Below are positions 2,474 through 26,127 of a stretch of DNA of 64,000 nt, piece by piece (position 1 is the stretch's first letter; every line of letters starts with the position of its first letter). The DNA is from Cylindrospermum sp. NIES-4074 (GTDB lineage: Bacteria; Cyanobacteriota; Cyanobacteriia; Cyanobacteriales; Nostocaceae), in NCBI GenBank assembly GCA_003994795.1, contig AP018269.1, positions 6,475,687 to 6,539,686 of the forward strand, in the 5' to 3' direction. Under the pieces are notes generated by a model. It ran no database searches. It was given only the letters and a program-made list of their open reading frames with translations, and was not told where the DNA came from. The translations under genes were made by a program, and so were the position numbers.

Positions 2474-2506
2474 TGAAACATAGTCCAAATCTTAATTTCT
2501 TGGGTT

Positions 2507-2725
2507 GAAATGAAGATTTTTCATCACTTTTTCTCCCAGAATTAGCCTTATTTATTAACCCAATTAAATTACCAGATCTACCTGACTGGGGAGAAGCTGC
2601 ACAAAGTGCTCTCGAATCTTTTTTTCCTAAACTAGTAGTGTCTCTTTTATTACTTGATATTGAACGCTTAACACCCCTTGCACGTAGTTGTGGTTTTGAC
2701 ATCCACTTTTCCAGGTGCAAGGTAT
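2507..2725 (+). pseudogene. possible gene fragment without a start codon
   Basis: About 72 codons stay open in one plus frame from 2507 to a TGA at 2723-2725 and read like a real protein (LPDLPDWGEAAQSALESFFP, then KLVVSLLLLDIERL). There is no credible start or ribosome binding site. The family was not recognised. It may be the tail of a decayed gene next to the RHH gene. The rest of the 2474-3021 spacer holds nothing else recognisable apart from a hairpin at 2795-2815. Confidence 0.25.
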
Positions 2726-2777
2726 GAGCCTCCAACTAGCGGCGATCGCCACTAGCAAAATATAGAAGAAACACCGC

Positions 2778-2815
2778 CGAGATTAAAAACCTCGAATCCT
2801 TACCAGGCAAGGATT
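2778..2815. terminator. double hairpin between RHH gene and P450
   Basis: CGAG/CTCG (2778-2781/2791-2794) is followed directly by a perfect 7-bp stem AATCCTT/AAGGATT (2795-2801/2809-2815) with a 7-nt loop. There is no long T tract. It is placed where a terminator for the minus-strand P450 gene, or for the plus-strand region, could lie. Confidence 0.35.
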
Positions 2816-3021
2816 ATAAAATGTGTTTCTTAAGAGTCTTGTTGTATTTGCGAGTTGAAGGAAGACAAAACAAGCACCCAATGATGAGTGACCTCAGCCA
2901 ATCCGGGATTTTGGAGATGGTTGCAGACAATATCATTCTAGCCGGGCGCAACGCGATTTTATCTGAATCAACCAACTATCAACCGCTTGCGCTGCTCCCC
3001 TGTCGTCCCAAACTCAAGTTG

Positions 3022-4443
3022 TTAGACTGATGAAGATGTGGACTGGGCTAATAATTTCAACCCAAATTTAGGCTGTAAGATAGTGGCTTCTATCTGTGAG
3101 ACAATCTCTTGATCAGGACTCAGAGTTAATGAAAACCTTTGCAAAATCATCGACAGCATCAACTGAACTTGTGTTGTCCCAAACCTGGCACCAACACATC
3201 CTCTCGCACCCATACCAAAGGGAATGTAGGCATATCGAGGACGAGCTTGTTCCTGTTCTGGGAGAAAACGATCAGGATCGAAATTGTCGGGATTTGGCCA
3301 GATAGTTGCGTCTTTGTGAATGACACAAATAGGAATACAGAAAGTTGCTCCTGTGGGAATTGTGTAATCACCAATAGGTATGTCTGATTCCACCAACCGC
3401 ATGGTCACAGGGTTGGGTGTGTACAAACGCAGAGATTCCTTGATCACGCGATTTAAATATTCAAGCCTTGGCAGATCCTCTAATTCTGGGAGTCGTCCAT
3501 CTAAGACCCGCGCTACTTCCTGCCGCGCTAAAGCTTGAATTTCTGGGTGTGTAGCTAGTAAATAACAAGTCCAAGTCAGAGCTGATCCAGCAGGATCAAA
3601 GCCACCAAACAAAAAAGTGAGCACTGAGCTACGAGCTTCGTTATCAGAAAAAAACTGCTCCCCGTTATCATTACGTTCGTTTAAAACTAGAGATAAGAGG
3701 TCATTTCGCTCATTGAGAGTTCTAGCTTTTCTTCTTTGTTCAATCAGTTCACCAGCACATTCTTGTAGACGAGTAACATCCTGATTCCATTGCCGATATT
3801 TGACGTCCCAAACTGGGGGGACAACCTCTTCTAGTCTTTGTTGAGATGTTGCCAAAATATGCTTAAATAATGTGCGGATTTCTTGTCCGAGATTTGTATT
3901 ACCGAACTCTTGTCCGAATGAACAACTACCCACAATGTCAAGTGTTAAGTTACTAAATTCTTCTTTGATATCAATAGCATCTCTCCTGACTGACCAGCCG
4001 TCTAACATTCTGGCTGTGCGGTCGTGGGTAGCCGAACATAGATATTGTAAAGATTGACCAATTAATAAGGGAAAAAATTTAGAGCGAGTTGTAATTGTTT
4101 CTGGGGGTTTTTGGAAAGTGAGGCTTTCTTTTCCCATCCATCCAAAGAGTTTTCTAGCGGCTTCTGGTCTGACAGATAAATGATTGGTGACTTCACCGAG
4201 AATGTCAATGTCACTCACAGAAACTGCGAGATCCGATGGTCCTAACCAAAATTTCACCACGGAACCATATTGCTGATGCAGTGCAGGCAAATAGTGCTGA
4301 AATCCACCTGTTTGCTTTAAGTTGACTAAGTTTCCCAAAAATGGGTTAGCTTGTGGACCGGGTAGAAGATCACCCAACTTTCGCAAAGTAGCTAAGTTAT
4401 TAAGTCCAACCAATCTCAAAACATTCCCTAAAATTTCGTCCAT
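3022..4443 (-). CDS. cytochrome P450 (copy B, C-terminally shortened)
   Basis: 473 residues. The heme ligand loop FGMGARGCVG (conserved Cys) is near residue 415, the K-helix ESLRLYTPNPVTMR (ExxR) near 335, and the proline-rich hinge LLPGPQANPFLGN near residue 26. There is no N-terminal membrane anchor. P450s are heme monooxygenases; the substrate is unknown. The I-helix reads FGGFDPAGSALTW: a Pro stands where most P450s have the proton-relay Thr. The start lies 48 bp after the cyclase stop, so the two are probably co-transcribed. It is a paralogue of the P450 at 8843-10303. The last ~430 bp are almost identical to that copy while the remainder has diverged. Its stop TAA replaces a CAA codon that is read through in the other copy, removing the last 13 residues. 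Confidence 0.92.
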   Translation of the reverse strand: MDEILGNVLRLVGLNNLATLRKLGDLLPGPQANPFLGNLVNLKQTGGFQHYLPALHQQYGSVVKFWLGPSDLAVSVSDIDILGEVTNHLSVRPEAARKLFGWMGKESLTFQKPPETITTRSKFFPLLIGQSLQYLCSATHDRTARMLDGWSVRRDAIDIKEEFSNLTLDIVGSCSFGQEFGNTNLGQEIRTLFKHILATSQQRLEEVVPPVWDVKYRQWNQDVTRLQECAGELIEQRRKARTLNERNDLLSLVLNERNDNGEQFFSDNEARSSVLTFLFGGFDPAGSALTWTCYLLATHPEIQALARQEVARVLDGRLPELEDLPRLEYLNRVIKESLRLYTPNPVTMRLVESDIPIGDYTIPTGATFCIPICVIHKDATIWPNPDNFDPDRFLPEQEQARPRYAYIPFGMGARGCVGARFGTTQVQLMLSMILQRFSLTLSPDQEIVSQIEATILQPKFGLKLLAQSTSSSV

Positions 4444-4491
4444 TTATTACAACCGTGTAAATATTTAAACTTGGGAGTATTTTCTCACAAT

Positions 4492-7400
4492 TTAGCCTGA
4501 CCTCAGTCTGGTTTTTGCCAAATCATCAGCAGCACCTAACTGAGTAAAAATTTCTTCGGCACGGGTGAGATGATGCGATCGCTTGGGATTATTGCTGCCA
4601 AGATGTCGTCCGAGTTCATAATGGGCTAAACCTAGCTGATAAGGTATTTGCAGACGTTCTGCTGCTTGCAGACTTTTTTTCCACGAAGCATAAGCGAGCA
4701 AACTATAACCTGACAACCATTCAAATAAACCTCGACAGCGCCAAGTATGAGGTTGACTAATTGCGAATGCTTGGGAATGTTCTTTGAGAGCTTTGCAGGC
4801 TAAACGTGCATTTAACTTGAATTCCTCTATTGGTTCCTGACGCTCAATAGCCTGTTCCCACCTTTCTAAGTACACGGTTGCCACACTTGCATAACCATCA
4901 ACATTGAAAGGGATAGCAGGTTTTGTTGTCGTTAAGAGTTGGATAGCTTGACGACAAGCCTCCATTGCTGCCGCTACTCTGCCATAGCGCCACTGAGCCT
5001 GAGCCTGCAACCCACAAGCCCAAATCAACTCAAAATTGTCAGGCTTGGAGCCAAACAAAGTTTCTACTGTTTCCAGAATGGCGATCGCTTCGCTGACTTG
5101 GTTCAACCTCAGGTGAATTTCAGCTTTGTTAAGTGAAGTGAGAATTTGGTTTTGGGTGTCACCACGACTACTAGCGGAATCGGTTATCCGGCTGAATTCT
5201 TGAATACATAACTTGAGATCCTCTTCAGTACCAGCAGTTTTATTGCGGACAAATAACAGTACCCCCATACTTGATTCCCAGCGGCGCAAGTCTCCCAAGC
5301 GCAGATGAATCTCTACAGCTTGTGTTAGCACTTCCCTCGCTGGTGCCCACCTCCCCATACCAATATCGCCGATGGCTGTGAGGAAAAATACCCAACCTGT
5401 TGTTGGCAGTTGATTCACTTTTACAGCCATTTCCCGGCCGAGGCGCTGATAGAATCTTCTAGTAGCTGCCGGTAGGACGGCAATTTGTGACATTCCTGCA
5501 TAACAACGTGCCAATTCTGGGCTTTCTCCCAGAGATTCAGCTAGGTTAAGAGCGGCTAAACCTGCATAGGTTGTTTTCGGCAATTCCTGAGCAAAAAAGT
5601 ACAGTTCTACGAGAATTTCATAGCAACGAATGATCTCTAAGGCATGTTCGGTGGGTAGTTCTTGGGGTCTGGACTTGATAGATTTAGGGGAAATCCGATT
5701 TTTGAGTTGCCTGGGTATAAGTTTAATCAGGGAAGTGGCTAATCCAATTGGTGTGTTAGGAATTGCTTGTTCGAGTCTAGCTAGACAACTCTCTATTGAA
5801 GTCCGGGCTTTAGGGGTGTTACCTAAGGAAAAATGGGCCATACCTAACTGTCGTTCCCAGCGTCCCCGGCGCAGTTGCTCATCTGGCTTTGAATATCTGG
5901 ACTTTTGGGAACTACTAAGCCTGTCAAATTCTAATGCTTTGGTGAAAAAGGCGATCGCTTCAGCGTTGGCGTAACTCCGCAGTGCTTGCTCTCCGGCCTT
6001 TTCTAGATACTCAATCGCTTTAGCTATGGTTTGACTTTGCTGTGGGATTCCGGCTTGCTCATCAACTGCTTTGCTCCAATGATAAGCCAGCATCGGATAG
6101 TAAGGAGACAAATCGCTCCCATGACTATTTTCAATCCACTGGGCAACTCGACAGTGTAACTCCTGACGCTGAGTAAACAGCATCAAGTTATAGGCAACTT
6201 CTTGAGTGATCACATGTTTGAAGATATAAGCCAAGTCTGGATCTGGTGTTTCCTGTAATGTCAAGTCAACTCCTTCCAAATTGTGGAGATAATTGAGTAA
6301 CTTCTCTTTTTCTTGTTCAACTGGATGGACGTCGCGCAGAGTTTTGTAAGCAAACATTCGTCCGATAACGCTGGCAACTTTGATCAACAATTGTTGTGAA
6401 AGTGAGAGTCGATCAATCCGGCTGGTAATCACGCCCTCCACTGTATCGGGGAAATTTAATTGGCTTAAATCTCCAGCTTCTGGAGTTAATCTGCACCGTC
6501 GTCCCTCAACTACCTCAATTAACCCAGCATCACGCAAGGCATAAGCTAATTCTTCACTGAAGAAGGGGTTGCCTTCAGCTTTGTTGTTAATTAGTTGGAT
6601 GACTGGAAAAGGCAGTGCATCTACTCCTAAGCGTTGGCAAACTAGAGCGATCGCTTCTGCGGGTTGCATGGCTCCCAATTCGATTTTCTGGGTGCTAGCC
6701 AATTGCAATATTTGAGCATATTCTACAGGCACAGGATCTGCCAAAGGGCGACAAGCAATGCACAACAGCAATGCTGGTACTCGCTGGCTAACTGCTACCG
6801 TAAGTCCCCAAGAAGCAGAATCTAGCCAGTGAGCATCTTCTAAAATCAGCAGTTTTGGTAATTGGCTGGCTCCTACTTGCAAAAGTTGCACTAATAAATT
6901 GCGGGTATTTTCAAACCTTACTTCGCTACTCATGTATTGAGTGATTTCGTTTTCTAGGAACTCCAGAGCTAAAACATCATTGAGCAGAGGTGACAGTTTA
7001 ATTAAATCTGGAACATGATTTTCTATCCAGCCTAAAAGATGGGTGCGTTGGGCTTCTAAGTCGCTGCCAAATTGCTTAAGTTGGAAAAATTCTCGAAAAA
7101 TATTGCGCCAAGCATAGTAAGTTGTTGATTTTTCAATAGCATCCCCAGCCCCAGTAAAGTTGCTAATTCCCATTTGTTGGGCTTGGGTTTGCAATTCTAG
7201 TAATAGTCGTGATTTACCAATTCCGGCTTCACCTTGAATAATAATTGTCTCGCTTTCAGCCTGATTTTGCAAAGCAGACAATTTTTGTATTAACAATTCT
7301 TTTTCTGCTATTCTCCCGACCATTTCGCCTGAAATTCGCGACAATATTTTCGGGTCTATAGTGGCTCCCGAAACTGTAAAAATCGCAATTTCTTCTGTTT

Positions 7401-8649
7401 TTCCTTTAACTTTAATCCGCCCCAAATCTAGAAATTCATATCGCCCAGAGGCGGCTTCTACTATCGATTCACTCAATAATATTTGTCCCGGTGCTGCTGT
7501 ACTCATCAACCGGGCTGCTATATTAGTTTGGTCACCAATGACACCATAAGTCATGCGCTGTTGACCACCATAGGCACCACACCCCATTTGTCCTAAACTG
7601 ATGCCAATTTGAACTGAGGTAATAAAGTTAAATTCTGGTGGGGTAGAACGTAGAGAAATGGCAGCTGCTATTGCCCGCGCGGCATTATCGTCATAACTAA
7701 TAGGCGCTCCAAAAGCCGCATAAATGACGCTGCCTTTATCGCCAATGTTTAACTGCAACAAATAACCACCGGCGTTTACCAGAATGTTTTGCGCCCAAGA
7801 TATATATTGGTTGAGTTTACTAGCAGCTACTGGATCTGAGTCATAATCTAAGCCACTAAAGCGTAAAAACAGAGTGCCAATTGTTCGCAGTTCGGCTAAA
7901 TATGCTTCTTGTCCACTAATGATTCGTTCGTAAACAGGAGGTAGTAACCAAGGTTTAATTTGGGATTCTGTGACGACTTCTGCCAGATTTTCCGGGAGTT
8001 GCCAAGGTGTGATGGCAACTGATTCTTTTAGTCCTGTGACAACTGTAAATTTCTCACCTTGATTAGTTTGTCGTTCTTCCAAGATGGTGACTCGATCTCG
8101 ATGGCGTTCGTAAGTTTTGCCATCAATAATGACTTCACCTTTTTCCGTCAATTTTTCTCCTGTCGCCATTCGATCTAAGGTGATACCCGCTAAAGTATCA
8201 ATATATTGAATTGTCGGATCACCTACTAAAAAGCGGCGGACTGTTCCCGTGGCAATTGCTACTTTTAAATCCAGAGATGTCCGAGACTCACCAATGAGAA
8301 CTTCTGAGAATTGCTCCATAACTCTCTGCATAGCTAAACCACAAGCGATCGCTCTTATTCCATCATCGGCATCAAACCAACAAGTAATTGCATCGCCGGC
8401 GAAACTAATCACGACCCCTTGATAATTTTTAACTTCCGTAATTATCGCATCGAAAACTTTATTTAATTCTTGAATTAATAGTTCTGCTCCCCGTTTTGGT
8501 CCGAAAATTTTTGCTAAATTAGCTGTCAAAGGAGTAAAGCCAGAAATATCAGCAAATAAAGTTGCTCCCTCTGAACTTTCAGGTAAAGGTTCGTTCCTAA
8601 ATATTGATAAAAGTCGGTCTATAAGAATGTAGCTTGTGAGTAATGTCAT
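4492..8649 (-). CDS. class III adenylate/guanylate cyclase with AAA-type ATPase and TPR-like region
   Basis: 1385 residues. Cyclase domain 1 (about 25-200) shows both metal-binding aspartates (LFADISGFT, Asp34; SFAGDAITCW, Asp86). A second cyclase-like domain (about 260-430) has GVIGDQTNIAARLMS, the Asn/Arg transition-state region, but a less canonical metal segment (LFLRFSGLDYDSD). An NTPase domain follows with Walker A GEAGIGKS near residue 473 and a Walker B-like LILEDAHW. The remaining ~600 residues are helical, TPR-like repeats. The order (two cyclase domains, ATPase, TPR) matches the soluble adenylyl cyclase (ADCY10) class. Whether it makes cAMP or cGMP cannot be settled from the sequence. 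Its start lies 193 bp beyond the end of P450 copy A, with a hairpin between, so it likely has its own promoter; P450 copy B follows by 48 bp. Confidence 0.88.
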   Translation of the reverse strand: MTLLTSYILIDRLLSIFRNEPLPESSEGATLFADISGFTPLTANLAKIFGPKRGAELLIQELNKVFDAIITEVKNYQGVVISFAGDAITCWFDADDGIRAIACGLAMQRVMEQFSEVLIGESRTSLDLKVAIATGTVRRFLVGDPTIQYIDTLAGITLDRMATGEKLTEKGEVIIDGKTYERHRDRVTILEERQTNQGEKFTVVTGLKESVAITPWQLPENLAEVVTESQIKPWLLPPVYERIISGQEAYLAELRTIGTLFLRFSGLDYDSDPVAASKLNQYISWAQNILVNAGGYLLQLNIGDKGSVIYAAFGAPISYDDNAARAIAAAISLRSTPPEFNFITSVQIGISLGQMGCGAYGGQQRMTYGVIGDQTNIAARLMSTAAPGQILLSESIVEAASGRYEFLDLGRIKVKGKTEEIAIFTVSGATIDPKILSRISGEMVGRIAEKELLIQKLSALQNQAESETIIIQGEAGIGKSRLLLELQTQAQQMGISNFTGAGDAIEKSTTYYAWRNIFREFFQLKQFGSDLEAQRTHLLGWIENHVPDLIKLSPLLNDVLALEFLENEITQYMSSEVRFENTRNLLVQLLQVGASQLPKLLILEDAHWLDSASWGLTVAVSQRVPALLLCIACRPLADPVPVEYAQILQLASTQKIELGAMQPAEAIALVCQRLGVDALPFPVIQLINNKAEGNPFFSEELAYALRDAGLIEVVEGRRCRLTPEAGDLSQLNFPDTVEGVITSRIDRLSLSQQLLIKVASVIGRMFAYKTLRDVHPVEQEKEKLLNYLHNLEGVDLTLQETPDPDLAYIFKHVITQEVAYNLMLFTQRQELHCRVAQWIENSHGSDLSPYYPMLAYHWSKAVDEQAGIPQQSQTIAKAIEYLEKAGEQALRSYANAEAIAFFTKALEFDRLSSSQKSRYSKPDEQLRRGRWERQLGMAHFSLGNTPKARTSIESCLARLEQAIPNTPIGLATSLIKLIPRQLKNRISPKSIKSRPQELPTEHALEIIRCYEILVELYFFAQELPKTTYAGLAALNLAESLGESPELARCYAGMSQIAVLPAATRRFYQRLGREMAVKVNQLPTTGWVFFLTAIGDIGMGRWAPAREVLTQAVEIHLRLGDLRRWESSMGVLLFVRNKTAGTEEDLKLCIQEFSRITDSASSRGDTQNQILTSLNKAEIHLRLNQVSEAIAILETVETLFGSKPDNFELIWACGLQAQAQWRYGRVAAAMEACRQAIQLLTTTKPAIPFNVDGYASVATVYLERWEQAIERQEPIEEFKLNARLACKALKEHSQAFAISQPHTWRCRGLFEWLSGYSLLAYASWKKSLQAAERLQIPYQLGLAHYELGRHLGSNNPKRSHHLTRAEEIFTQLGAADDLAKTRLRSG

Positions 8650-8764
8650 AACTGTTTTTATTGCAGATAAGGTAAAGTTTTGCTAAGGTCTTCGGAAGAG
8701 TTAAAAATTAAATAATTTAAAAACTGAATTTCTAGCTAATTTTATTTGTGTATCTTCTCATAAA

Positions 8765-8801
8765 CTCTGTTAAGGCAAGTATAGGCAATGCCTCAACAGA
8801 G
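8765..8801 (-). terminator. hairpin after P450 copy A
   Basis: CTCTGTT (8765-8771) pairs with AACAGAG (8795-8801), and inside it AGGCA (8773-8777) pairs with TGCCT (8789-8793) with one mismatch between the blocks. On the minus strand this lies between the P450 stop and the cyclase start, so it may end the P450 transcript. Confidence 0.5.
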
Positions 8802-8842
8802 ATATCTAGTCATTTTAAACACAACTCAAATTTTTGTATTTC

Positions 8843-10303
8843 TTAACTATTTTCTATTCCCTTTCCTACTAACTCAAGTTGTTGGACGGATGAAGATGTG
8901 GACTGGGCTAATAATTTCAACCCAAATTTAGGCTGTAAGATAGTGGCTTCTAACTGTGAGGCAATCTCTTGATCAGGACTCAGAGTTAATGAAAACCTTT
9001 GCAAAATCATCGACAGCATCAACTGAACTTGTGTTGTCCCAAACCTGGCACCAACACATCCTCTCGCACCCATACCAAAGGGAATGTAGGCATATCGAGG
9101 ACGAGCTTGTTCCTGTTCTGGGAGAAAACGATCAGGATCGAAATTGTCGGGATTTGGCCAGATAGTTGGGTCTTTGTGAATAACACAAATAGGAATACAG
9201 AAAGTTGCTCCTGTGGGAATTGTGTAATCACCAATAGGTATGTCTGATTCCACCAACCGCATGGTCACAGGGTTGGGTGTGTACAAACGCAGAGATTCCT
9301 TAATGACTCGATTTAAATATTCAAGCCTTGGCAGATCCTCTAATTCTGGCAACCTTCCGGCCAATACGCGCTCGACTTCCGAACGCGCTAAAGCTTGAAT
9401 TTCTGGGTGTGTAGCTAGTAAATAACAAGCCCAAGTCAGAGATGAACCAGCGGGATCGAAGCCACCAAACAAAAAAGATACAACAGCCGCACGAGCTTCT
9501 GCATCAGTGAAAACCTGACCCCCACTATCATTGCGTTCATTTAAAACTAAAGATAATAGGTCATTGCTTTGACGAAGTCCACCTGCTTGCTTTCTTTGTG
9601 TGATTAGTTCTCCAGCGCATTCGTGCAACCGAGAAACATCTCGATTCCATTGGTGATAATTGACATCCCAAACCGGGGGAACAACTTCTTCTAATCTTTG
9701 CTGAGAATTTACCAAGACATTCTTGAACAAAGTCCGAATTTCTTGCCCCAACGATGTATTGCCAAACTCTTGACCAAATGAACAACTGCCCACAATGTTC
9801 AGAGTCAAGCCGCTAAACTCTTCTTTGACATCAATAGCATCCTTTCTCTGTGACCAGCTATCTAGCATTTTCACAGTCTGCTCGTGGCTAACAGAACATA
9901 AATTTTGCAGAGAGGAGCCAATTAATAGGTGAAAAAAATTAGACCGGGTTGTGATTAATTCAGGTGGTTTTTGGAAGGTGATACTCTCTTTTCCCATCCA
10001 TCCCAAGAGTTTTTTGGCAGCATCTGGTCTGGCAGATAAATTATTGGTGACTTCACCGAGAATCTCAATATCACTGACGGAAACTCCTAATTCTAATGGA
10101 CCTAACCAAAATTTCACGATGGAGCCATATTGCTTATGTAGTGCCGGCAGGTAGTTCTGAAATCCACCTGCTTGCTGTAAGTCAGGTAAATTTCCCAATA
10201 ATGGGTTAGCAGGTGGGCCGGGTATAATGTCACCCAACTTTCGCAAAGTAGCTAAGTCATTAAGTCCAATCAAGCTCAAAAAATTCCCTAAAATTTTGTT
10301 CAT
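8843..10303 (-). CDS. cytochrome P450 (copy A, full length)
   Basis: 486 residues. It has the same landmarks as the other copy: FGMGARGCVG heme loop, ESLRLYTPNPVTMR ExxR helix, PGPPANPLLGN hinge, and FGGFDPAGSSLTW I-helix with Pro in place of the usual Thr. The N-terminal two thirds differ from copy B at many positions (for example MNKILGNFLSLIGLND against MDEILGNVLRLVGLNN), but the last third is almost identical even at synonymous sites. The C-terminus runs on to VQQLELVGKGIENS, past the point where copy B stops. Immediately upstream (10353-10393) lie the last codons of a vanished cyclase gene. The electron donor and substrate are unknown. Confidence 0.92.
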   Translation of the reverse strand: MNKILGNFLSLIGLNDLATLRKLGDIIPGPPANPLLGNLPDLQQAGGFQNYLPALHKQYGSIVKFWLGPLELGVSVSDIEILGEVTNNLSARPDAAKKLLGWMGKESITFQKPPELITTRSNFFHLLIGSSLQNLCSVSHEQTVKMLDSWSQRKDAIDVKEEFSGLTLNIVGSCSFGQEFGNTSLGQEIRTLFKNVLVNSQQRLEEVVPPVWDVNYHQWNRDVSRLHECAGELITQRKQAGGLRQSNDLLSLVLNERNDSGGQVFTDAEARAAVVSFLFGGFDPAGSSLTWACYLLATHPEIQALARSEVERVLAGRLPELEDLPRLEYLNRVIKESLRLYTPNPVTMRLVESDIPIGDYTIPTGATFCIPICVIHKDPTIWPNPDNFDPDRFLPEQEQARPRYAYIPFGMGARGCVGARFGTTQVQLMLSMILQRFSLTLSPDQEIASQLEATILQPKFGLKLLAQSTSSSVQQLELVGKGIENS

Positions 10304-10352
10304 TTATTACAACTGTGTAAATATCTTAGTTCTTGGAGTATTTTATCACAAT

Positions 10353-10393
10353 TTAGCCTAACGTAAGTTTGGTTTTTGCCAAATCATCGACCA
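10353..10393 (-). pseudogene. 3' remnant of a second cyclase gene
   Basis: On the minus strand these bases encode VDDLAKTKLTLG followed by TAA, matching the last residues of the intact cyclase (ADDLAKTRLRSG, stop). The 49-nt spacer to the P450 ATG also matches the spacer after the intact cyclase (shared GTGTAAATAT and GGAGTATTTT words). Similarity ends abruptly near 10393. This is the scar of a duplicated cyclase-P450 unit whose first cyclase was deleted. Confidence 0.8.
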
Positions 10394-10492
10394 TTACTGA
10401 AAACATTTGTATAGGCAGGCAAGAGGCGAAAAATATAGGAAATTAATGTTTACCACCAGGTTTTTAGCAAACTTTTTTCCTCCTTTTAACTT

Positions 10493-12067
10493 TTAAAGTG
10501 TACTAGCATTCATACTTAAAGGTTTCTCCAATGAAAATTGAGTTTCAAAGTATGCCAATAACGGTTTGATATGTACTTCCTCCAACCACTCACTAATTAA
10601 GTCTTCAATTACATGATGCTCATTTATCAGGTGATTGTAACTCCAACGACGAATAATGGGATGAATTGTTGTACTGAGAGCCGCACGATCGCTATCATCT
10701 TTATGGACACGCTCAAAATCAAAAGGATCAGCAATTGATTGCAGGAGATGGAAGCCAAATTCTAAGGTGACTGTGTAGTAACAATCGTGCTGGACAAATT
10801 TACTGTCTTGGATATAATCTACTGGAACTTCTTCATAGTATCGAGCCTCTTTGTCTGCAATAATAATTAAGTCGCAAATAACTCCGTTTTGCAGCCATAA
10901 ACTAGAGCTTATATTCACTCTTTGCAAAATAGCATCTGTTAACGCTTTTGGCGTTGCTGCCATCTGTTGACTTATCCACGGCTGATTGTGATACTTAAGT
11001 TCAAAGATACGGTGCATTGCTTGGATATTGTACCGAAAGCCGTGGACAAAACCAGACTGTTTCTTCTGATAATCTCGGCTGTGCATCAGATTTCCCGCAA
11101 AATATAAATCTTTTATTTGGGAAGATTCCCAGGAACTTGTTAGCACCGGAAATCGATTATTTATTGTCAATTCTGGTTGACATGATTCATCAAAAATAGA
11201 AACATCAAAAGTAAATCCTGTACACAAAATTACCCGATCATAAATAAGATATTCTTGTTCTGAGTGAGCATGAGTGTAAGTGAATAGAACCCCAAATTTC
11301 CCATCTTTATGTTCTATTTTATCAATGGTCGCATCCAGAATTGCATTCTGAGATTTGAGTTGGTATGTATCTAAAATATTATTATTAACAGCTCGCAGAT
11401 TTCCAACATATTTAGTCTTCCACGCCATTGATATCGGATGGGGACTGGCTAAATGAATCATGGATGTGGTTTCCAATAGATTATTAGCAGTTTCAAATCC
11501 GGAATTACCTTTACCAATAATCAAGACTCTTTGATTTATAAACTCTGCGGGGTTGATGGAGACATCCGTATATTTTTCTGCTAATTCGATGCCGGGTATT
11601 GGTGGGATGTAAAGTTGAGAAAGACCGGTGGCAATTATCAGACGCTTTCCCCAATAAACACTACCTGATTTATCTCTAACTTCAAATTTATTCGACTTAT
11701 AAATTTTGCAAACTTGGGCACTATATTTAATTTTGATATCAAAATGCGTAGCAAAATCTCTAAGATACTTTACAAAATTATCTGCATGGGGAAAATAGCT
11801 GTGGCTATAATCTTTAAAAGCCATTTCAGAGCAGTCATTCAATAAAGAATGCCAATCCCACCGGAGATTTATTTCTAGATTACTATAACCTGTATAAACT
11901 TTATTAATTGAAATCAACTGGCGGTGTCGAGGAAACTTTTGGAAGAACATTCCCGGAGTTTCATCTGCTTCCAAAATTAAGTAATTTCGATTGGCTTTTT
12001 CGAGAAAGTAACCTAATTGCAATCCAGCCGGGCCAGCACCAATAATCAAATATTCAAATTCAGACAT
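10493..12067 (-). CDS. FAD-dependent monooxygenase-like oxidoreductase
   Basis: 524 residues. The N-terminal dinucleotide-binding motif YLIIGAGPAG (FAD, residues ~7-16) is followed near residue 186 by a second, NAD(P)H-type motif VLIIGKGNSGFETANNL. FAEEDVxFG-like boundaries are not obvious, but RLIIATG and RVILCTGFTFD are the usual FAD-domain ends. This two-Rossmann layout is that of flavin-containing monooxygenases and FOXRED2-like proteins. A ~150-residue C-terminal domain beyond the flavin core contains IHPIIRRWSYNHLINEHHVIEDL, outside the usual FMO fold. The gene starts 26 bp after the heme-oxygenase-like gene ends, so they form a two-gene operon. Substrate unknown. It is followed on the same strand by P450 copy A, with a 190-bp spacer. 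Confidence 0.82.
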   Translation of the reverse strand: MSEFEYLIIGAGPAGLQLGYFLEKANRNYLILEADETPGMFFQKFPRHRQLISINKVYTGYSNLEINLRWDWHSLLNDCSEMAFKDYSHSYFPHADNFVKYLRDFATHFDIKIKYSAQVCKIYKSNKFEVRDKSGSVYWGKRLIIATGLSQLYIPPIPGIELAEKYTDVSINPAEFINQRVLIIGKGNSGFETANNLLETTSMIHLASPHPISMAWKTKYVGNLRAVNNNILDTYQLKSQNAILDATIDKIEHKDGKFGVLFTYTHAHSEQEYLIYDRVILCTGFTFDVSIFDESCQPELTINNRFPVLTSSWESSQIKDLYFAGNLMHSRDYQKKQSGFVHGFRYNIQAMHRIFELKYHNQPWISQQMAATPKALTDAILQRVNISSSLWLQNGVICDLIIIADKEARYYEEVPVDYIQDSKFVQHDCYYTVTLEFGFHLLQSIADPFDFERVHKDDSDRAALSTTIHPIIRRWSYNHLINEHHVIEDLISEWLEEVHIKPLLAYFETQFSLEKPLSMNASTL

Positions 12068-12093: not shown

Positions 12094-12792
12094 TTACTTT
12101 ATTTGGCGGGATAAGGCAAATTCTAACATTTCTTCCGTTGCTTCTGTAAAAGCTTTAAATACAGCCTTTACTAACTCCAAACTTTCTTGTGTTTGCTGTT
12201 GATTTAACTCCAGTGTTTCTAGAAATGGCTCGATGTTAAATTCACCTCTAGTGTGACCAGTTTCTACAGCAAAATGATGTTCTCCAAAATAGTGGTATTG
12301 CTTTTGGGTAATTTGTTGAAGTTCTTTGGCAACTTGCGCCGTTCGAGATAAAATTACATTCCCTGTTGCTTCAATGGCTTCCACAATAACTAGTTTCTGA
12401 ATTGGCTCAACTTGAGAGATACATATTGCAATCAGTGTATTACAACAAGCGCGTGTTTTCTTAGTTTCTTCTCCCCACATAAATCTCAAAGAATCGCTGA
12501 ATTTTTGTGAAGGGTCAAGGTTCAGTGTTACCAAATCTTCAAGAAACCACATCCAGTGATTTTCATCTTCATATGTGTGCTGGTTAACAATTTTTTGAAT
12601 TTCATTTTTGGCTGGTTCTTCTCGCAGAATATATTTGTTTAAATCTCCAAAATTCATAGCAAAAGGAGCAACGCAGGGAGCAAATGCTAGACGTTGACTA
12701 GGGTCTATAGTTTTGTCTTCTAGAAACTTCATCAACGGAACCTGAGCAAATTCTTGCTGTTTAATGTCAATAAATTCAAGGATTTTTTTCAT
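12094..12792 (-). CDS. heme-oxygenase-like (HDO/TenA-type) protein, possible non-heme diiron enzyme
   Basis: 232 residues, all-helical. Candidate metal-binding positions are seen in HTYEDENHWMWFLEDL (about residues 70-85) and YFGEHHFAVETGHTRGEF (about 165-182), a spacing of acidic residues and histidines typical of the heme-oxygenase-like diiron oxidase/oxygenase superfamily. Members carry out N-oxygenation, C-C cleavage or desaturation of small molecules, but some relatives are not enzymes. The gene is first in an operon with the flavin monooxygenase-like gene (26-bp gap). Upstream, decayed group II intron sequence runs to within about 35 bp of the start, so the promoter may be young. The superfamily call is fairly firm; the exact reaction is unknown. 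Confidence 0.65.
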   Translation of the reverse strand: MKKILEFIDIKQQEFAQVPLMKFLEDKTIDPSQRLAFAPCVAPFAMNFGDLNKYILREEPAKNEIQKIVNQHTYEDENHWMWFLEDLVTLNLDPSQKFSDSLRFMWGEETKKTRACCNTLIAICISQVEPIQKLVIVEAIEATGNVILSRTAQVAKELQQITQKQYHYFGEHHFAVETGHTRGEFNIEPFLETLELNQQQTQESLELVKAVFKAFTEATEEMLEFALSRQIK

Positions 12793-15148: not shown

Positions 15149-17059
15149 TCACAAAATTGTGCCAATTTCCTTCAAGTAAACTCGTGTAAATGGTTCTTCT
15201 TCTCCCAGGCTGTAATCTTCAATCAAGCCTTTGCTTCTAATAGAAATGTCGTTTCCTTTTCTAATTACCACGGTAGACCCATCAAAGACATCCCTCATCA
15301 GTGTCATCTCCGTTTCACTAGGATTATCCAGCACTACCATATTGCTACCCTGGTAAAACATCCCCTCTTCTTCTAGGATATGTCCTGTGTATTCGGCAAT
15401 CAGCAAATCTAGTTTGGGATGACGCAGCAAAATTTGCACGTTGCTGTTGTAATCTTTGTTCAATACTTTTGCTGACCGATTTACAAAAACCCCTTCACGA
15501 CAAACAGCTCCAATTGTCCATTCAGGGTGTTGTAAAAGAATATGGTCTATGGTTGCTTGCAGTTCTGGAACTGAGATTTTATTAAAGGTAATTATCGGTA
15601 TTCTAGCGTCTTTACCTGACTCAAAAAAGGTTTCCAAAATATGAGCAGGTACATCAACACTCTCACCAACCGCTGGGTTAAAATGCATCAAAATACCCGG
15701 TGCAGAGTTGATTTCTAAGATGGCAAAATTACCAGATTTCCAAGATTCTGAGAGACTTTTGGTAATGACATCAATACCGATACAAGTTAGCCGGAAATGT
15801 TGGGCAATGTCTTGTGCCAAGATAATGTTGTCATGGTGAACTCCTGGCGTAGCATCAATACTCATGCCACCAGCAGACAGATTAGCAACTTTGCGAAGCT
15901 GAACAATGCGGTCTTTGTTAATGACGCTGTTTAATGACAAACCTTTTTCTTCTAGGCACAGTTCCATCGCTTCATCAATTTGAATCTTGCTCATTGGCGA
16001 GGTGGGTGAATCCAAACGTGCAGGTTTGCGATTTTCTCGCCTAATTAACTCATCAATTGTTGAATATCCATCACCCACAATCGATGCTGGACGGCGTTCT
16101 GTGGCGGCGACAAATTTGCCATTCACGCACAATAAGCGAAAATCTGCTCCTGATATACTGTTTTCAACAATTATGCGTATTGGCTGATCTTCTGGGATTG
16201 CAGCAACTGCCCGATTATACGCAGATACCAGTTCCTTGGCATCTTGCACATCAGCTGTCACACCAATTCCTTTATGACCTACCACAGGCTTAATTGCTAC
16301 TGGGTAGCCAATGTCTCTGGCTACGGCTAAGGCTTCCTTTTCAGAAATGACAATATCACCCTCAGGAACAGGGAAACCCAAAGCTTTTAAAAATGCTTTG
16401 CAATCATCCTTGCGGGTGGTGAATTCTGAATCTAGATGGCTATCACTGTCAAAAGTGGTAGCTACTCCCCGAACCAGTTTTTTGCCGTGGCCATATTGCA
16501 TCAGTCCTTCTTCCCATAAATAAAAGGCGGGAATACCTTTTTCATAGGCGGTTCGCAATAGGGCGTAAACTGTGGGGCCACCGTAGACAGATATCCGGTA
16601 TCTGTTCTGAAGTCTTACTAGCTGGTCGTCAAAGAGGAAATCTTCGTCTTGAGTAATAGCTTCAAACCAATCCCACACAAAGTAAACTACTGCTCTAGTT
16701 GTGCGTTCGTGTAGGGATTGGACGCTAATCCGCACAAAGTCATCATATGGCTTGACACTCCAACGGTTGAGGTGCAAACCCATGTCTAGCTTTCCTACTT
16801 CTGAGACAACGCGAGCAAATAAATGAGCATGGGAGGGGTATGTTTGCTTGCCCAAGTGCGGATAGCGATCGCTAATTATCGAGACGTAATCCTCAATGGC
16901 TAGTGGCGATCGATATTCAGTTAGAGAAAAATCAAACACTAGCGCCCCTGTATCTAAATAGGGGTTCGGGCCAATGTAATGCTTAAAGTCAAAAATATCG
17001 AAGACATCAGTTTTTCTAGCATTGATGCGGATTACATCGGTGATTTGTTCTTGAACCAT
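15149..17059 (-). CDS. cphA2: cyanophycin synthetase 2 (short form)
   Basis: 636 residues. The N-terminal ~200 residues are CphA-like. An ATP-grasp domain spans about 215-480, with VVGHKGIGVTADVQDAKELV (nucleotide loop) and AILEINSAPGILMHFNP (metal and ATP residues). Classical CphA1 is about 900 residues and ends in a Mur-ligase-type ATPase domain. Here the protein stops after ~150 further residues without that module's GxxGKT loop, as described for CphA2 of N2-fixing cyanobacteria, which repolymerises beta-aspartyl-arginine dipeptides. Cyanophycinase, which produces those dipeptides, is encoded 1.2 kb away on the opposite strand. Product: multi-L-arginyl-poly-L-aspartate, a cytosolic nitrogen store. 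The CphA2 call rests on length and missing domain. Confidence 0.85.
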   Translation of the reverse strand: MVQEQITDVIRINARKTDVFDIFDFKHYIGPNPYLDTGALVFDFSLTEYRSPLAIEDYVSIISDRYPHLGKQTYPSHAHLFARVVSEVGKLDMGLHLNRWSVKPYDDFVRISVQSLHERTTRAVVYFVWDWFEAITQDEDFLFDDQLVRLQNRYRISVYGGPTVYALLRTAYEKGIPAFYLWEEGLMQYGHGKKLVRGVATTFDSDSHLDSEFTTRKDDCKAFLKALGFPVPEGDIVISEKEALAVARDIGYPVAIKPVVGHKGIGVTADVQDAKELVSAYNRAVAAIPEDQPIRIIVENSISGADFRLLCVNGKFVAATERRPASIVGDGYSTIDELIRRENRKPARLDSPTSPMSKIQIDEAMELCLEEKGLSLNSVINKDRIVQLRKVANLSAGGMSIDATPGVHHDNIILAQDIAQHFRLTCIGIDVITKSLSESWKSGNFAILEINSAPGILMHFNPAVGESVDVPAHILETFFESGKDARIPIITFNKISVPELQATIDHILLQHPEWTIGAVCREGVFVNRSAKVLNKDYNSNVQILLRHPKLDLLIAEYTGHILEEEGMFYQGSNMVVLDNPSETEMTLMRDVFDGSTVVIRKGNDISIRSKGLIEDYSLGEEEPFTRVYLKEIGTIL

Positions 17060-18267: not shown

Positions 18268-19122
18268 ATGACAGAGAGTAATAGCAATCGGCAGCTAGTG
18301 ATTATTGGGGGAGCGGAAGACAGAGATGGGGATTCTCAAATCCTGCGAGAGTTTGTCCGCCGTGCTGGGGGTACAAAGGCACACATTGTCATCATGACAG
18401 CAGCGACGGAACTACCAAGAGAAGCTGGGGAAAATTATATTAGAGTGTTTGAGCGACTCGGAGCTGCGGAGGCTCGGATCGTGGACACGGAAACTCGTGA
18501 GGATGCAGCTTCATCTACGGCTTTAGAAGCAATTAATAAAGCTACAGGAATATTTTTTACTGGAGGCGACCAAGCTCGCATTACTAGTATCCTTAAAGAC
18601 ACTCAAATTGATACAGCGATTCATAAACGTTTCGCTGAAGGTGCAGTTGTCGCAGGGACTAGTGCAGGAGCTGCTGTGATGCCAGATAACATGATTATTG
18701 AAGGCGATTCCCAGACAAATCCGCGCATTGAAGTTGTGGAAATGGGCCCTGGTCTTGGTTTCCTTCCTGGGGTGGTGATTGATCAACATTTTTCCCAACG
18801 CGGACGCTTGGGACGCTTAATTTCTGCTTTGGTGCAACAGCCTGCGGTTTTGGGTTTCGGCATTGATGAGAATACGGCTATGGTTGTGACAGATAACCAG
18901 ATTCAAGTAATTGGACAAGGTGCAGTCACAATTGTGGATGAATCAGAGGCTACATATAACAATCTGGATGAAATTTTAAAGGATGAGCCTTTGGCAGTTT
19001 TCGGTGCAAAGCTGCATATTTTGCCAAATGGCTACAGATTTGACCTGAAAACCCGTCAGCCTATCTTAAGCGATCGCTCGGTGCCTAATGTCGCTGTACC
19101 CGCTGGTTCTATAAATACCTGA
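18268..19122 (+). CDS. cphB: cyanophycinase
   Basis: 284 residues. It carries the serine-protease-like nucleophile elbow VVAGTSAGAAVM (Ser in GTSAGA), the N-terminal LVIIGGAEDRDGD segment and IFFTGGDQARI, all typical of peptidase family S51 cyanophycinases. It cleaves cyanophycin to beta-aspartyl-arginine dipeptides in the cytosol. Length is normal for the family. It is encoded near, and divergently from, cyanophycin synthetase 2, which can reuse the dipeptides. A hairpin follows the stop by about 56 bp. Confidence 0.93.
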   Translation: MTESNSNRQLVIIGGAEDRDGDSQILREFVRRAGGTKAHIVIMTAATELPREAGENYIRVFERLGAAEARIVDTETREDAASSTALEAINKATGIFFTGGDQARITSILKDTQIDTAIHKRFAEGAVVAGTSAGAAVMPDNMIIEGDSQTNPRIEVVEMGPGLGFLPGVVIDQHFSQRGRLGRLISALVQQPAVLGFGIDENTAMVVTDNQIQVIGQGAVTIVDESEATYNNLDEILKDEPLAVFGAKLHILPNGYRFDLKTRQPILSDRSVPNVAVPAGSINT

Positions 19123-23413: not shown

Positions 23414-24979
23414 TTACTCTTTAATGATATAGTTAAATCCTTTAATAAAATCCACGATTGTATTTAGCGAAGGCATCATGTATTTTGCAGATTCGCTTAT
23501 ACCATCATAAACTAAAGTCCTGACTTCAGTGCAATGAATAAATCGCTTCCCAAAGTTGGGATTGTCATACACAATCAAAGTGTTAGCACTAGAATTTGTT
23601 AATATTGTCTGGGTGGATGCTTTGACAAAGTTTAAATTTTCTGGTAGACCCAAATTTTTTTTCCTTTGCTTGATAGTTGTGGCCTTACCCACAGACTCAT
23701 CTATTAACGAGGTTAATTGCTTCAGCAAATGAGGAAATTTTATATTTTGGTGATTCATCACAACGCTGGTGATCATTTTCTCCATCCTGTGAATATTTTT
23801 TTGGGTAGCGGCGGCATCTTGAAAGGGAAGAATGGCCATGTAAGCTGTTGGGAATAAAGCTTCATCGCTATCTACTCGGAAGATGAAAACAGTGCGACGC
23901 CGCCCAATTTCTATGCTTGGGGGTTGTGTCAGTGCTGGGTATTCTTGAGCAATATGGTAATAAGCATTGGCGATCGCTAAATTTGCTTCATGTTCTAGCG
24001 GGGCGTCAACAACAATGCGGATTGTCGGCGAAGCAGCATTAAAAAAGTCCCGTGAGTCTTCAGCATCAAATTTTTGGATGATCGAGCGATCGCCTGTGGG
24101 AGAGAGGTCAATCCATTCCCACGTCATACCTTCAGTTTTTAAACCAAACCGGGGGGTAGCGTAGAGTTTAGCCCCGGTGATCATGGCTCCCGTTAAGTCG
24201 GCGTCAATCCATTCCACCTTAATTAATTTTGCCTGACTTAAATTGGCGTGTACTAAACTGGCGTTTGTTAAATTGGCATGACTCAAGTCTGCCCCAGTGA
24301 GGTTAGCACCACTCAATTTAGCCCCGCTTAAATCTGCCCAACTGAGGTTAGCCCCGGTTAAATCTGCCCAACGCAAATTAGCCCCGCTTAAATCTGCCCC
24401 ACTGAGGTTAGCAAGGTGGAGATTCGCCTGTTTAAGTTCGCTATCTCGCAGATTTGCGCTGCTGAGGTCTGTGAAACTCATATCGGCGGCGTTTAAGTTA
24501 GCCATCTCTAAATTAGCCCCCGTTAGAGAACAGCCTTTTAAGTTGGCTTCGCTCAAGTTAGCGTAACGGAGATTCGCTTGGCGGAGTGTAGCTTCTCGTA
24601 AATCGGCGCTGGTGAGGTTAGCCTTGAACAGGTCAGCACGGCTGAGATCCGCTCGAATTAACTCGGCGCGAACCAGGGAAGCTCCCCGGAGTTGAGCGCG
24701 ACTGAGATCCGCTCGAATTAAATTAGCGACATTGAGACTAGAATGATTGAGATTAGCGCTGACAAGATTTGCACCGCTGAGTCTGGCCACATTCATCTGG
24801 GCATTGCTCAAGTTGGCTTCGCACAGATTTGCACCACTCAGGTTAACTATACTTAAATTAGCTTGGCTCAGATTGGCCCCACTCAGTTTGATGCCACTCA
24901 GGTTAGCTTCAGAAAGGTTAACACCACTAAAGTCTAAAACTCCCGACGCATATTTTTCCAGCAATTCCTCTACAGTCAT
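23414..24979 (-). CDS. pentapeptide-repeat protein with unknown C-terminal domain
   Basis: 521 residues. Residues ~15-265 are about 50 pentapeptide units of the A(D/N)LxX type (for example ANLSGADLSGANLRWADLTG), expected to form a right-handed quadrilateral beta-helix. The remaining ~250 residues are not repeats. They contain a globular region (IRIVVDAPLEHEANLAIANA, RRRTVFIFRVDSDEALFPTA) and a helical/beta tail ending DFIKGFNYIIKE. No signal peptide or membrane helix is seen. The C-terminal domain was not recognised. It is divergent from tyrA, with 68 bp between the two starts. Confidence 0.8.
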   Translation of the reverse strand: MTVEELLEKYASGVLDFSGVNLSEANLSGIKLSGANLSQANLSIVNLSGANLCEANLSNAQMNVARLSGANLVSANLNHSSLNVANLIRADLSRAQLRGASLVRAELIRADLSRADLFKANLTSADLREATLRQANLRYANLSEANLKGCSLTGANLEMANLNAADMSFTDLSSANLRDSELKQANLHLANLSGADLSGANLRWADLTGANLSWADLSGAKLSGANLTGADLSHANLTNASLVHANLSQAKLIKVEWIDADLTGAMITGAKLYATPRFGLKTEGMTWEWIDLSPTGDRSIIQKFDAEDSRDFFNAASPTIRIVVDAPLEHEANLAIANAYYHIAQEYPALTQPPSIEIGRRRTVFIFRVDSDEALFPTAYMAILPFQDAAATQKNIHRMEKMITSVVMNHQNIKFPHLLKQLTSLIDESVGKATTIKQRKKNLGLPENLNFVKASTQTILTNSSANTLIVYDNPNFGKRFIHCTEVRTLVYDGISESAKYMMPSLNTIVDFIKGFNYIIKE

Positions 24980-25047
24980 GAATGCTAACCCTCAGATGCC
25001 TACTCTAATAATTGGTAAAGTATGCAGAAAATTAAGTAACAGATGGA

Positions 25048-25902
25048 ATGTCAACAACAAAAATGAATATTGGGATTTTAGGTTTGGGGCTGATAGGCGG
25101 ATCTTTGGGTTTTGATTTGCGATCGCAAGGACATTATGTTTTAGGGGTGAGTCGTCAGGAATCAACTTGCCAAAAGGCCATAGCCTTGGGTAATGTCGAT
25201 CAAGCTGCGGTTGAACTCAGCCTGTTAGCAGCCGCAGATGTGGTATTTATTTGCACGCCCATAGGACTTATTGTTCCCCAAGTTGCACAGTTAATCGCTC
25301 ATTTGTCTCCCGCTACGATTTTGACTGATGTTGGTTCTGTGAAAGCACCAATAGTCAAGGCGATTTCTCCCCTGTGGGATCATTTTATCGGTGGTCATCC
25401 AATGGCGGGAACTGCTGATAGTGGGATAGAAGCTGCACAGCGGAATTTATTTGTTGATCGGCCTTATGTGCTAACGCCAATTAGCACTACACCAACCATC
25501 GCGATTACAATTGTCGAGGAAATTGTGCGATCGCTGGGGGCGACTATTTACCATTGTCACCCAGAACAACACGACCGAGCGGTGAGTTGGATTTCCCATT
25601 TACCTGTGATGGTCAGCGCTTCATTGATTGCAGCTTGTTTAAGTGAAACTGACCCTGATGTGTTGCAATTAGCCCAAAATCTAGCTAGTTCTGGCTTTCG
25701 GGATACCAGTCGTGTCGGTGGTGGCAATCCAGAGTTAGGGGTGATGATGGCCCAGTATAATCGTCCAGCAATATTGCGATCGCTCCAACAATATCGCCAC
25801 AACCTCGACGAATTAATGTACCTCATTGAGCAGGAAAATTGGACTGAGTTAGAGAAAAAGCTGCATTCAACACAACAAGCACGACCTGATTTTGTCGAAT
25901 AA
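25048..25902 (+). CDS. tyrA: prephenate/arogenate dehydrogenase
   Basis: 284 residues. The NAD(P)-binding motif GILGLGLIGGSLG starts near residue 8. DVVFICTPIGLIVPQ, TDVGSVKAPIV, GGHPMAGTADSG and SHLPVMVSASL are the usual TyrA landmarks, including the His of the GGHPMAG loop. It performs the oxidative decarboxylation leading to tyrosine; cyanobacterial members usually prefer arogenate and NADP, which cannot be settled here. ATG 25048 is used; ATG 25063 (MNIGILGLG) is a close alternative. Divergent from the pentapeptide gene. Confidence 0.93.
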   Translation: MSTTKMNIGILGLGLIGGSLGFDLRSQGHYVLGVSRQESTCQKAIALGNVDQAAVELSLLAAADVVFICTPIGLIVPQVAQLIAHLSPATILTDVGSVKAPIVKAISPLWDHFIGGHPMAGTADSGIEAAQRNLFVDRPYVLTPISTTPTIAITIVEEIVRSLGATIYHCHPEQHDRAVSWISHLPVMVSASLIAACLSETDPDVLQLAQNLASSGFRDTSRVGGGNPELGVMMAQYNRPAILRSLQQYRHNLDELMYLIEQENWTELEKKLHSTQQARPDFVE

Positions 25903-26127
25903 TTCGCCTAATCAATCAGATATCCTGCTTTTTCAGGGGGGTTGGGGCGCTCAAAAATTCAACTTACAATTGAAAAAAACAGGCTCCCACCCATGCCTTT
26001 AACTCAATGAGTTATGTAGGACTCCTATTTGATTTTTGAACAAAACCCCGTTCACATATGCCGAACTTCTTTCTTGTTCCCTGTTCCCTGCCTCCACGAG
26101 TAAGTTCACGAGTCAAACCGGATTCCT
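25903..26127. other. gene-free spacer after tyrA
   Basis: A weak hairpin (CCTG/CAGG around a T-run near 25925) may end tyrA. No other gene or strong structure was recognised before the foldback element starting at 26128. Confidence 0.4.

What the first reader, a model, noticed from the sequence alone, without database searches (positions are those of the whole stretch)
3022..10393. Degraded tandem duplication of a cyclase-P450 cassette
The bases upstream of P450 copy A encode the last 12 residues and stop of a cyclase, matching the end of the intact cyclase, and the spacers to the two P450 starts also match. So the ancestral order was cyclase-P450-cyclase-P450, and the first cyclase was deleted down to its tail. 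Retention of a two-domain cyclase with a P450 in each unit suggests the pairing is functional: a signalling enzyme linked to an oxidative step.
Basis: partly seen in the sequence, partly recalled or inferred. Interest (0 to 1): 0.72.

Follow-up and report, generated by a model that had tools for sequence, protein, structure and literature searches.

The report
Duplicated P450 gene carrying cyclase scrap
A cyanobacterium duplicated an oxidising enzyme gene together with the last few codons of the neighbouring cyclase gene; the duplication is real, but the nearest relatives found tie these oxidising enzymes to an iron enzyme encoded next door rather than to the cyclase.

Summary
On the minus strand the order is HDO (AetD/SktA-like diiron enzyme) - FMO - cyclase scrap - P450-1 - intact cyclase - P450-2. 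A 1.5-kb direct repeat (3011-4527 and 8871-10388, 85.7% identical) covers the last 11 cyclase codons plus stop (32/36 bases), the spacer (40/48) and the P450; the match is far above chance. Divergence is patchy: 79% identity over the 5' two-thirds, 98% over the 3' third (gene conversion). The scrap lies 4 bases from a broken copy of a ~130-bp inverted-repeat element, marking a rearrangement junction. Tandem duplication of a cyclase-P450 unit followed by loss of the first cyclase is the likeliest history, but no genome searched keeps the four-gene order, so it is inferred. The functional reading (cyclase coupled to P450) is not supported: the two nearest P450 relatives (46%) have no cyclase in the stretches read; one, Leptolyngbya sp. 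Heron Island J, has P450-HDO-P450. The nearest cyanobacterial cyclase relative found has no P450 beside it. The cyclase has human soluble-adenylyl-cyclase architecture but lacks the adenine-recognition pair (Q, G for K, T). Best read as a small oxidative biosynthetic cluster acting on an aromatic amino acid, with a large cyclase/ATPase as possible regulator.

The parts
12094..12792 (-). HDO: haem-oxygenase-like diiron enzyme of the AetD/SktA kind, 232 aa
   Evidence: phmmer to AetD 9.9e-55; the six diiron ligands of AetD are conserved, F at AetD position 214 and T at 142 as reported for SktA
10493..12067 (-). FMO-like flavoprotein, 524 aa, 26 bases after HDO
   Evidence: Pfam Pyr_redox_3 1.1e-45; found beside the HDO in 7 of 20 fetched relative HDO loci at 63-66% identity
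10393..10427 (-). 35-bp fragment of a ~130-bp dispersed inverted-repeat element, lacking the element's last 17 bases
   Evidence: 89% to three genomic places; element has 25 matches in the own genome at E<=1e-4, 40 of 74 candidates scored; missing end not found at 8650-8870
10353..10388 (-). cyclase remnant: 11 codons and stop
   Evidence: 32 of 36 bases identical to 4492-4527
8843..10303 (-).
   Evidence: Pfam p450 5.4e-90; repeat ends at 8871
4492..8649 (-). two-domain class III cyclase - AAA_16 ATPase - TPR protein, 1385 aa
   Evidence: Pfam; human soluble adenylyl cyclase 3.2e-22, both cyclase domains matched; Walker-A-like motif at 473, Walker-B-like at 600
4444..4491 (-). spacer between cyclase stop and P450-2 start, matched upstream of P450-1
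   Evidence: 40 of 48 columns
3022..4443 (-). P450-2 (downstream copy), 473 aa, ended by a stop at codon 474 where P450-1 has a glutamine codon
   Evidence: Pfam p450 4.4e-90; the repeat runs 11 bases past this stop
3011..4527 (-). repeat unit, downstream copy
8871..10388 (-). repeat unit, upstream copy

Best explanation
A stretch holding a cyclase gene and the P450 gene behind it was duplicated in tandem; the first cyclase was then deleted from a point inside an inverted-repeat element downstream of the FMO gene to eleven codons before its own end, leaving the scrap in front of P450-1 (inferred). Later the last third of the two P450 genes was made nearly identical by gene conversion (the sharp change point is shown; the process is inferred). 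The P450 copies have diverged under purifying selection on average. The P450s belong with the HDO and FMO genes upstream: most likely the HDO oxidatively cuts the side chain of an aromatic amino acid such as tryptophan, the FMO and the two P450s modify the product, and the duplication gave two P450s for two oxidation steps or two substrates (inferred). The cyclase/ATPase is a local addition, at most a regulator of the cluster, and may not make cAMP.
For: Repeat, tail and spacer. Change point at column 1039 of 1518, log-likelihood gain 59; 5' part 79.2% identity, dN 0.145, dS 0.736; 3' part 98.1%, dN 0.008, dS 0.047. Junction with a truncated repeat element. HDO-FMO pair seen in 7 of 20 relative HDO loci. 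HDO ligands kept. Cyclase pocket Q299/G369 in place of K/T (residue roles recalled).
Against: No genome searched keeps two cyclases with two P450s, so the deletion step is not seen directly. A copy of tail-P450 pasted upstream of the cyclase would leave the same tail. No homology to the cyclase region or its upstream flank is detected between FMO and the scrap. The inverted-repeat fragment lacks its left half too, so it may have been a relic before the event. Only two relatives near 46% were found, so the HDO-P450 link rests on one outside genome plus this one; of 20 relative HDO loci 19 have no P450 match. A P450 - cyclase order does occur in two distant Chloroflexi genomes. No product is known.
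Confidence: 0.55

Rival explanations
1. Copy-and-paste: only a 1.5-kb segment (cyclase tail, spacer, P450) was copied to a place upstream of the cyclase, with no second full cyclase ever present.
For: One event instead of two; the homologous segment is tail-spacer-P450, with no cyclase homology beyond 36 bases at standard scoring.
Against: Needs a non-tandem, same-orientation insertion of a segment that holds only the tail and the P450 gene; the repeat element at its left end is broken and its missing end is not found at the other end of the segment.
Confidence: 0.3
2. Cyclase and P450 form a functional pair, the cyclase signalling for or gating the P450 step.
For: Adjacent, same strand, 48-base spacer; a P450 - 175 aa protein - cyclase order also occurs in two Chloroflexi genomes (L103, L099). 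A large kinase protein with an AAA_16 ATPase (domains scanned in one of them, L026) stands within 4 kb of the HDO in 13 of 20 relative loci.
Against: The two nearest P450 relatives lack the cyclase and the nearest cyanobacterial cyclase relative found (G281) lacks the P450 in the stretches read. Of 80 P450 loci, 3 have a cyclase match in the held flank (at most 10 kb a side, often less) and 77 do not. The two genomes with adjacent genes give 12 matches each to the cyclase protein at E<=1e-15, 10 and 9 of them reaching into the cyclase domains, so by my estimate 3-4% of loci would have one within 10 kb by chance; both show the same, probably inherited arrangement. Of 24 cyclase matches in those genomes 20 had loci, and 2 of the 20 have a P450 within 1.5 kb, by position the same two. 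Here the first cyclase was lost.
Confidence: 0.12
3. The locus is an aetokthonotoxin-type cluster in the strict sense.
For: HDO related to AetD (41% identity over the aligned part), a flavoprotein and P450s next to it.
Against: HDOs of this kind occur in 123 of 292 genomes searched, own included, at E<=1e-10; position 214 is F as in SktA, not S as in AetD; no halogenase family was hit among the nine proteins scanned with Pfam or the nine with NCBIfam at E<=0.001.
Confidence: 0.03

Closest known systems
AetD / SktA haem-oxygenase-like diiron oxidases (AetD: indole nitrile; SktA: skatole, with cyanide according to a reference title in PMC13108848)
   Same: Sequence family (AetD), six diiron ligands, F44/I146/Y167 of the AetD pocket; F214 and T142 as reported for SktA
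   Different: 41% identity to AetD; I at position 139 (M in AetD, T in SktA); SktA itself was not compared by sequence; substrate unknown
Human soluble adenylyl cyclase (ADCY10) architecture
   Same: Two cyclase domains matched, then ATPase and TPR region (ADCY10's own ATPase/TPR layout recalled); both metal aspartates and the Asn/Arg of the second domain aligned
   Different: Adenine pair K334/T405 is Q299/G369; bicarbonate-site K95 is S82 (roles recalled)
Leptolyngbya sp. Heron Island J P450-HDO-P450 locus (NZ_AWNH01000010.1)
   Same: Two P450s of this family tightly packed with an HDO
   Different: No FMO or cyclase match; an O-methyltransferase and an FAD enzyme nearby; P450s 34% and 46% identical to P450-1
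Ordinary tandem gene duplication with gene conversion
   Same: Direct repeat, patchy divergence, degraded partner
   Different: Nothing categorically different

Membership tests
Duplication with degraded second gene | Homology of the duplicated segment above chance and including part of the neighbour gene | tested here: met
Duplication with degraded second gene | A relative that retains the undegraded double unit | tested here: not met
   none seen among 292 and 388 genomes searched with P450-1 (sets overlap; only the 4-5 best candidates per genome scored), nor in the 80 loci kept from the second genome-contig scan; the first scan confirmed none
AetD/SktA-type HDO | Six diiron ligands (AetD D76, H79, E140, H172, E176, H179) | tested here: met
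   conserved in the window protein and in the 8 relatives aligned
AetD/SktA-type HDO | AetD-specific S214 contacting the C7 bromine | tested here: not met
   F, as reported for SktA
AetD/SktA-type HDO | Converts tryptophan derivatives | not testable with these tools
   needs assay
Soluble-adenylyl-cyclase-type class III cyclase | Two cyclase domains + ATPase + TPR | tested here: met
Soluble-adenylyl-cyclase-type class III cyclase | Metal-binding Asp pair and transition-state Asn/Arg | tested here: met
   D34, D86, N376, R380 (roles recalled)
Soluble-adenylyl-cyclase-type class III cyclase | Adenine-specifying Lys/Thr pair | tested here: not met
   Q299, G369; the G281 relative has K, T and two Chloroflexi proteins (L103, L099) R, T (roles recalled)
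Aetokthonotoxin cluster | Flavin-dependent halogenases AetA/AetF | tested here: inconclusive
   no halogenase family hit among the proteins scanned; no AetF seen among the 60 listed of 79 PDB hits for the FMO; single-sequence fold too poor to compare
Aetokthonotoxin cluster | P450 of the AetB kind | not tested
   the AetB sequence was not fetched
Cytochrome P450 | Pfam p450, ExxR and haem Cys motif | tested here: met
   (motifs recalled, seen in the alignment); I-helix GGFDPA lacks the usual Thr (alignment; motif recalled)

The most novel reading that the evidence does not exclude
A large AAA-ATPase signalling protein is a standing partner of AetD/SktA-like HDO-FMO modules: kinase-ATPase-histidine-kinase type in many Nostocaceae-like relatives, here replaced by a cyclase-ATPase-TPR protein with an altered nucleotide pocket set between two P450s, so that a second messenger (possibly not cAMP) or ATP-driven sensing gates an oxidative amino-acid-cutting pathway.
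Probability: 0.12. Interest if true: 0.6.

Novelty: new member of a known kind. Interest (0 to 1): 0.35.

Why it matters
The duplication itself is ordinary. It points to an oxidative cluster (HDO, FMO, two P450s) for which the paper searches made here showed no description, built around a diiron enzyme family whose two members described in PMC13108848 do striking chemistry on tryptophan derivatives. That P450s of this family also flank such an HDO in a cyanobacterium of another family makes the HDO-P450 link a testable lead for new chemistry.

Tried and rejected
Functional cyclase-P450 pair: rejected as the leading view after the neighbourhood checks. Cyclase homology beyond 36 bases upstream of the scrap: not shown. 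Plasmid collection with cyclase and P450 as queries: only matches under 60% identity, those listed 25-30%. First genome-contig scan with three P450s: no confirmed match; second with five P450s: 80 loci kept of 469, one near relative. Structure of the FMO from one sequence: mean pLDDT 34, not used. Paper searches for a cyclase-P450 link gave one paper off the subject and none; for P450 in Leptolyngbya Heron Island J none. Searches were seen as listings with abstract beginnings; nothing further was taken from them except the papers named next. Papers seen as found passages: PMC11611611, PMC10306068, PMC12210266, PMC13108848, PMC10654658 (and one section). Not tested: whether the P450s are related to AetB; I did not ask for the aetokthonotoxin cluster (the unnamed relatives searched may or may not include its producer).

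My note gives 8 of 20 for the HDO-FMO pair; the right count is 7 of 20 (corrected). In one search the G281 cyclase was translated in the wrong frame; one search repeats it correctly and only one search is used for the cyclases.
Full report
What is there. All the genes lie on the minus strand, in transcription order: HDO 12792-12094, FMO-like flavoprotein 12067-10493, cyclase scrap 10388-10353, P450-1 10303-8843, cyclase/ATPase/TPR protein 8649-4492, P450-2 4443-3022. A self-comparison of the first 20 kb shows one long direct repeat, 3011-4527 and 8871-10388, 85.7% identical over 1522 columns. It starts 36 bases before the end of the cyclase gene, stop included, and ends 11 bases after the stop of P450-2. 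The 36 bases code for 11 residues and the stop, 32 of 36 bases identical; the next best place in the window has 22 of 36. The 200 bases upstream of the two P450s align with score 113 against at most 32 in 5000 shuffles. In the own genome no third copy of this P450 was found: the next of 7 matches is 31% identical; one copy of the cyclase was found at E<=1e-20.

Age and selection. Along the repeat, identity changes sharply at column 1039 of 1518 (log-likelihood gain 59): tail 32/36, spacer 40/48, first part of the P450 79.2% over 955 columns, last part 98.1% over 479 columns. dN and dS are 0.145 and 0.736 before, 0.008 and 0.047 after the change. So the duplication is old, the tail and spacer fit the age of the first part of the P450, an exchange in the last third is recent, and the ratio near 0.2 on both sides speaks for working proteins on average. 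P450-2 ends at a stop where P450-1 has a glutamine codon; P450-1 runs on for 28 bases of sequence not shared with P450-2.

How the scrap arose. Four bases upstream of the scrap ends a 35-base piece (10393-10427) that is 89% identical to three places in the same genome. Those places are copies of a ~130-base element with inverted ends TATAGGA...TCCTATA. The element has 25 full or partial matches in the genome at E<=1e-4 (40 of 74 candidates scored), one of them a near-full-length copy, 72% identical, at window 26017-26130. The piece at the scrap stops at element position 113 of 130; the missing end is not found at 8650-8870 behind P450-1. The left half of the element is not recognisable either. 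The simplest reading is a deletion running from inside the element to eleven codons before the end of a first cyclase. Tandem duplication of tail-P450 alone would have given cyclase-P450-tail-P450, which is not the order seen. Pasting of a 1.5-kb copy remains possible. No genome searched shows the double unit.

Relatives of the P450s. With P450-1 as query, 2 of 292 genomes match at E<=1e-75 (own and G054, 46%) and 2 of 388 genomes of the class at E<=1e-70 (own and G445); only the 4-5 best first-look candidates per genome were scored, so misses are possible. A stricter search, E<=1e-150, gave 1 of 198, the own genome. G054's P450 sits beside a penicillin-acylase-like gene and large synthetase-like genes (named from recalled likeness, not from a family search) with no match to the cyclase, HDO or FMO in 19.9 kb. 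G445 has P450 23128-24591, HDO 24770-25489 and P450 25526-27013 in one orientation and no cyclase or FMO match in the 35 kb read. The genome-contig scan names the same contig (length 48,347, same positions) as Leptolyngbya sp. Heron Island J, and that genome has no match to the cyclase protein at E<=1e-15. Of 80 loci kept from that scan (of 469 confirmed), 3 have a cyclase match in the held flank, 1 has an HDO match (Leptolyngbya itself) and none an FMO match. Two of the three cyclase cases, one titled Anaerolineae and one Chloroflexi, have P450 - 175 aa protein - cyclase in the same order; in the third the cyclase is about 9 kb away. Those two genomes give 12 matches each to the cyclase protein at E<=1e-15, 10 and 9 of them reaching into the cyclase domains, so chance neighbours are expected at a few percent of loci (my estimate); of 20 cyclase loci from them, 2 have a P450 within 1.5 kb, by position the same two.

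The cyclase. It matches human soluble adenylyl cyclase over both catalytic domains (3.2e-22), followed by an AAA_16 ATPase and TPR region. The metal aspartates (D34, D86) and the Asn/Arg of the second domain (N376, R380) are in place, but the adenine pair is Q299/G369 instead of K/T, and the bicarbonate-site lysine is S82; the alignment at R176 gives A162 but is uncertain there (roles of residues recalled). In Cyanobacteria its best relative found (G281, 43%) has no P450, HDO or FMO match in 19 kb; it was the only other match in 292 genomes at E<=1e-120, with two candidates scored per genome, and 148 other genomes gave none at E<=1e-45 with four scored. Proteins 34-41% identical occur in the two Chloroflexi genomes.

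The HDO and FMO. The HDO is 41% identical to AetD over the aligned part and keeps the six diiron ligands listed in PMC10654658; position 214 is F and 142 is T as PMC13108848 reports for SktA, and 139 is I. HDOs of this kind occur in 123 of 292 genomes, own included, at E<=1e-10. In 20 relative HDO loci fetched (the 18 best hits outside the own genome, plus one each from the two congeners), the FMO is beside the HDO in 7, and a protein 54-72% identical to the kinase-ATPase-GAF-histidine-kinase protein of L026 (itself counted; domains scanned only there and in the window) lies within 4 kb in 13. The 20 loci are related and not independent. One of the 20 has a P450 match (30%), about 5 kb off. 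In the window the nearest such kinase (49%) is 13.5 kb away.

Setting. The stretch is not shared with the two congeners searched: next to their copy of the 15149-17059 gene (85-88% identical), none of seven window proteins between 77 and 14470 (ATG-started frames of 100 aa or more: sulfatase, both P450s, cyclase, FMO, HDO, TPR protein) is found at E<=1e-20 in the 8.8 kb (G002) and 17.5 kb (G001) read on that side.

Function. Shown: gene order, families, conserved residues, neighbourhoods. Inferred: the HDO cuts an aromatic amino acid, and FMO and P450s work on the product. The P450 I-helix reads GGFDPA where most P450s have a threonine (motif recalled), which hints at unusual oxygen activation. 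The cyclase could regulate the cluster, but nothing here ties it to the P450s beyond adjacency.

Verdict. The history is likely but inferred. The functional claim is not supported; the better-supported partner of the P450s is the HDO.

Noticed in passing
L023-L042 (relative HDO loci): A protein 54-72% identical to the 1.9-kaa kinase-AAA_16-GAF-histidine-kinase protein of L026 (itself counted) lies within 4 kb of the HDO in 13 of 20 loci: a possible standing signalling partner of the HDO(-FMO) module.
   Followed up: partly
window 26017-26130; 10393-10427: Copies (one near full length, one a fragment) of a ~130-bp inverted-repeat element with ends TATAGGA...TCCTATA, 25 matches in the genome at E<=1e-4 with 40 of 74 candidates scored.
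   Followed up: partly
window 15149-17059 and 18268-19122: A 636-aa ATP-grasp protein like the first part of cyanophycin synthetase (below the families' curated cut-offs), and a cyanophycinase on the other strand; the former was found in 6 of 6 relatives queried, 72-88% identical, one with an internal stop.
   Followed up: no
window 2474-3030: Between P450-2 and the 1883-2473 gene lie broken open frames; a plus-strand frame ending at 3030 (69 aa as listed) runs into the 3' end of P450-2.
   Followed up: no
window 8843-10303 and 3022-4443: P450 I-helix GGFDPA lacks the usual threonine in both copies; G054 also lacks it (GGFDAV), one of the two Leptolyngbya P450s has AGFDTS (motif recalled).
   Followed up: partly
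L042 1151-2509: A P450 about 30% identical to these copies lies about 5 kb from an HDO in a congener.
   Followed up: no
L103, L099: P450 - 175 aa protein - cyclase/ATPase in the same order in two Chloroflexi genomes; the 175 aa protein of L103 has no Pfam match at E<=0.001.
   Followed up: partly
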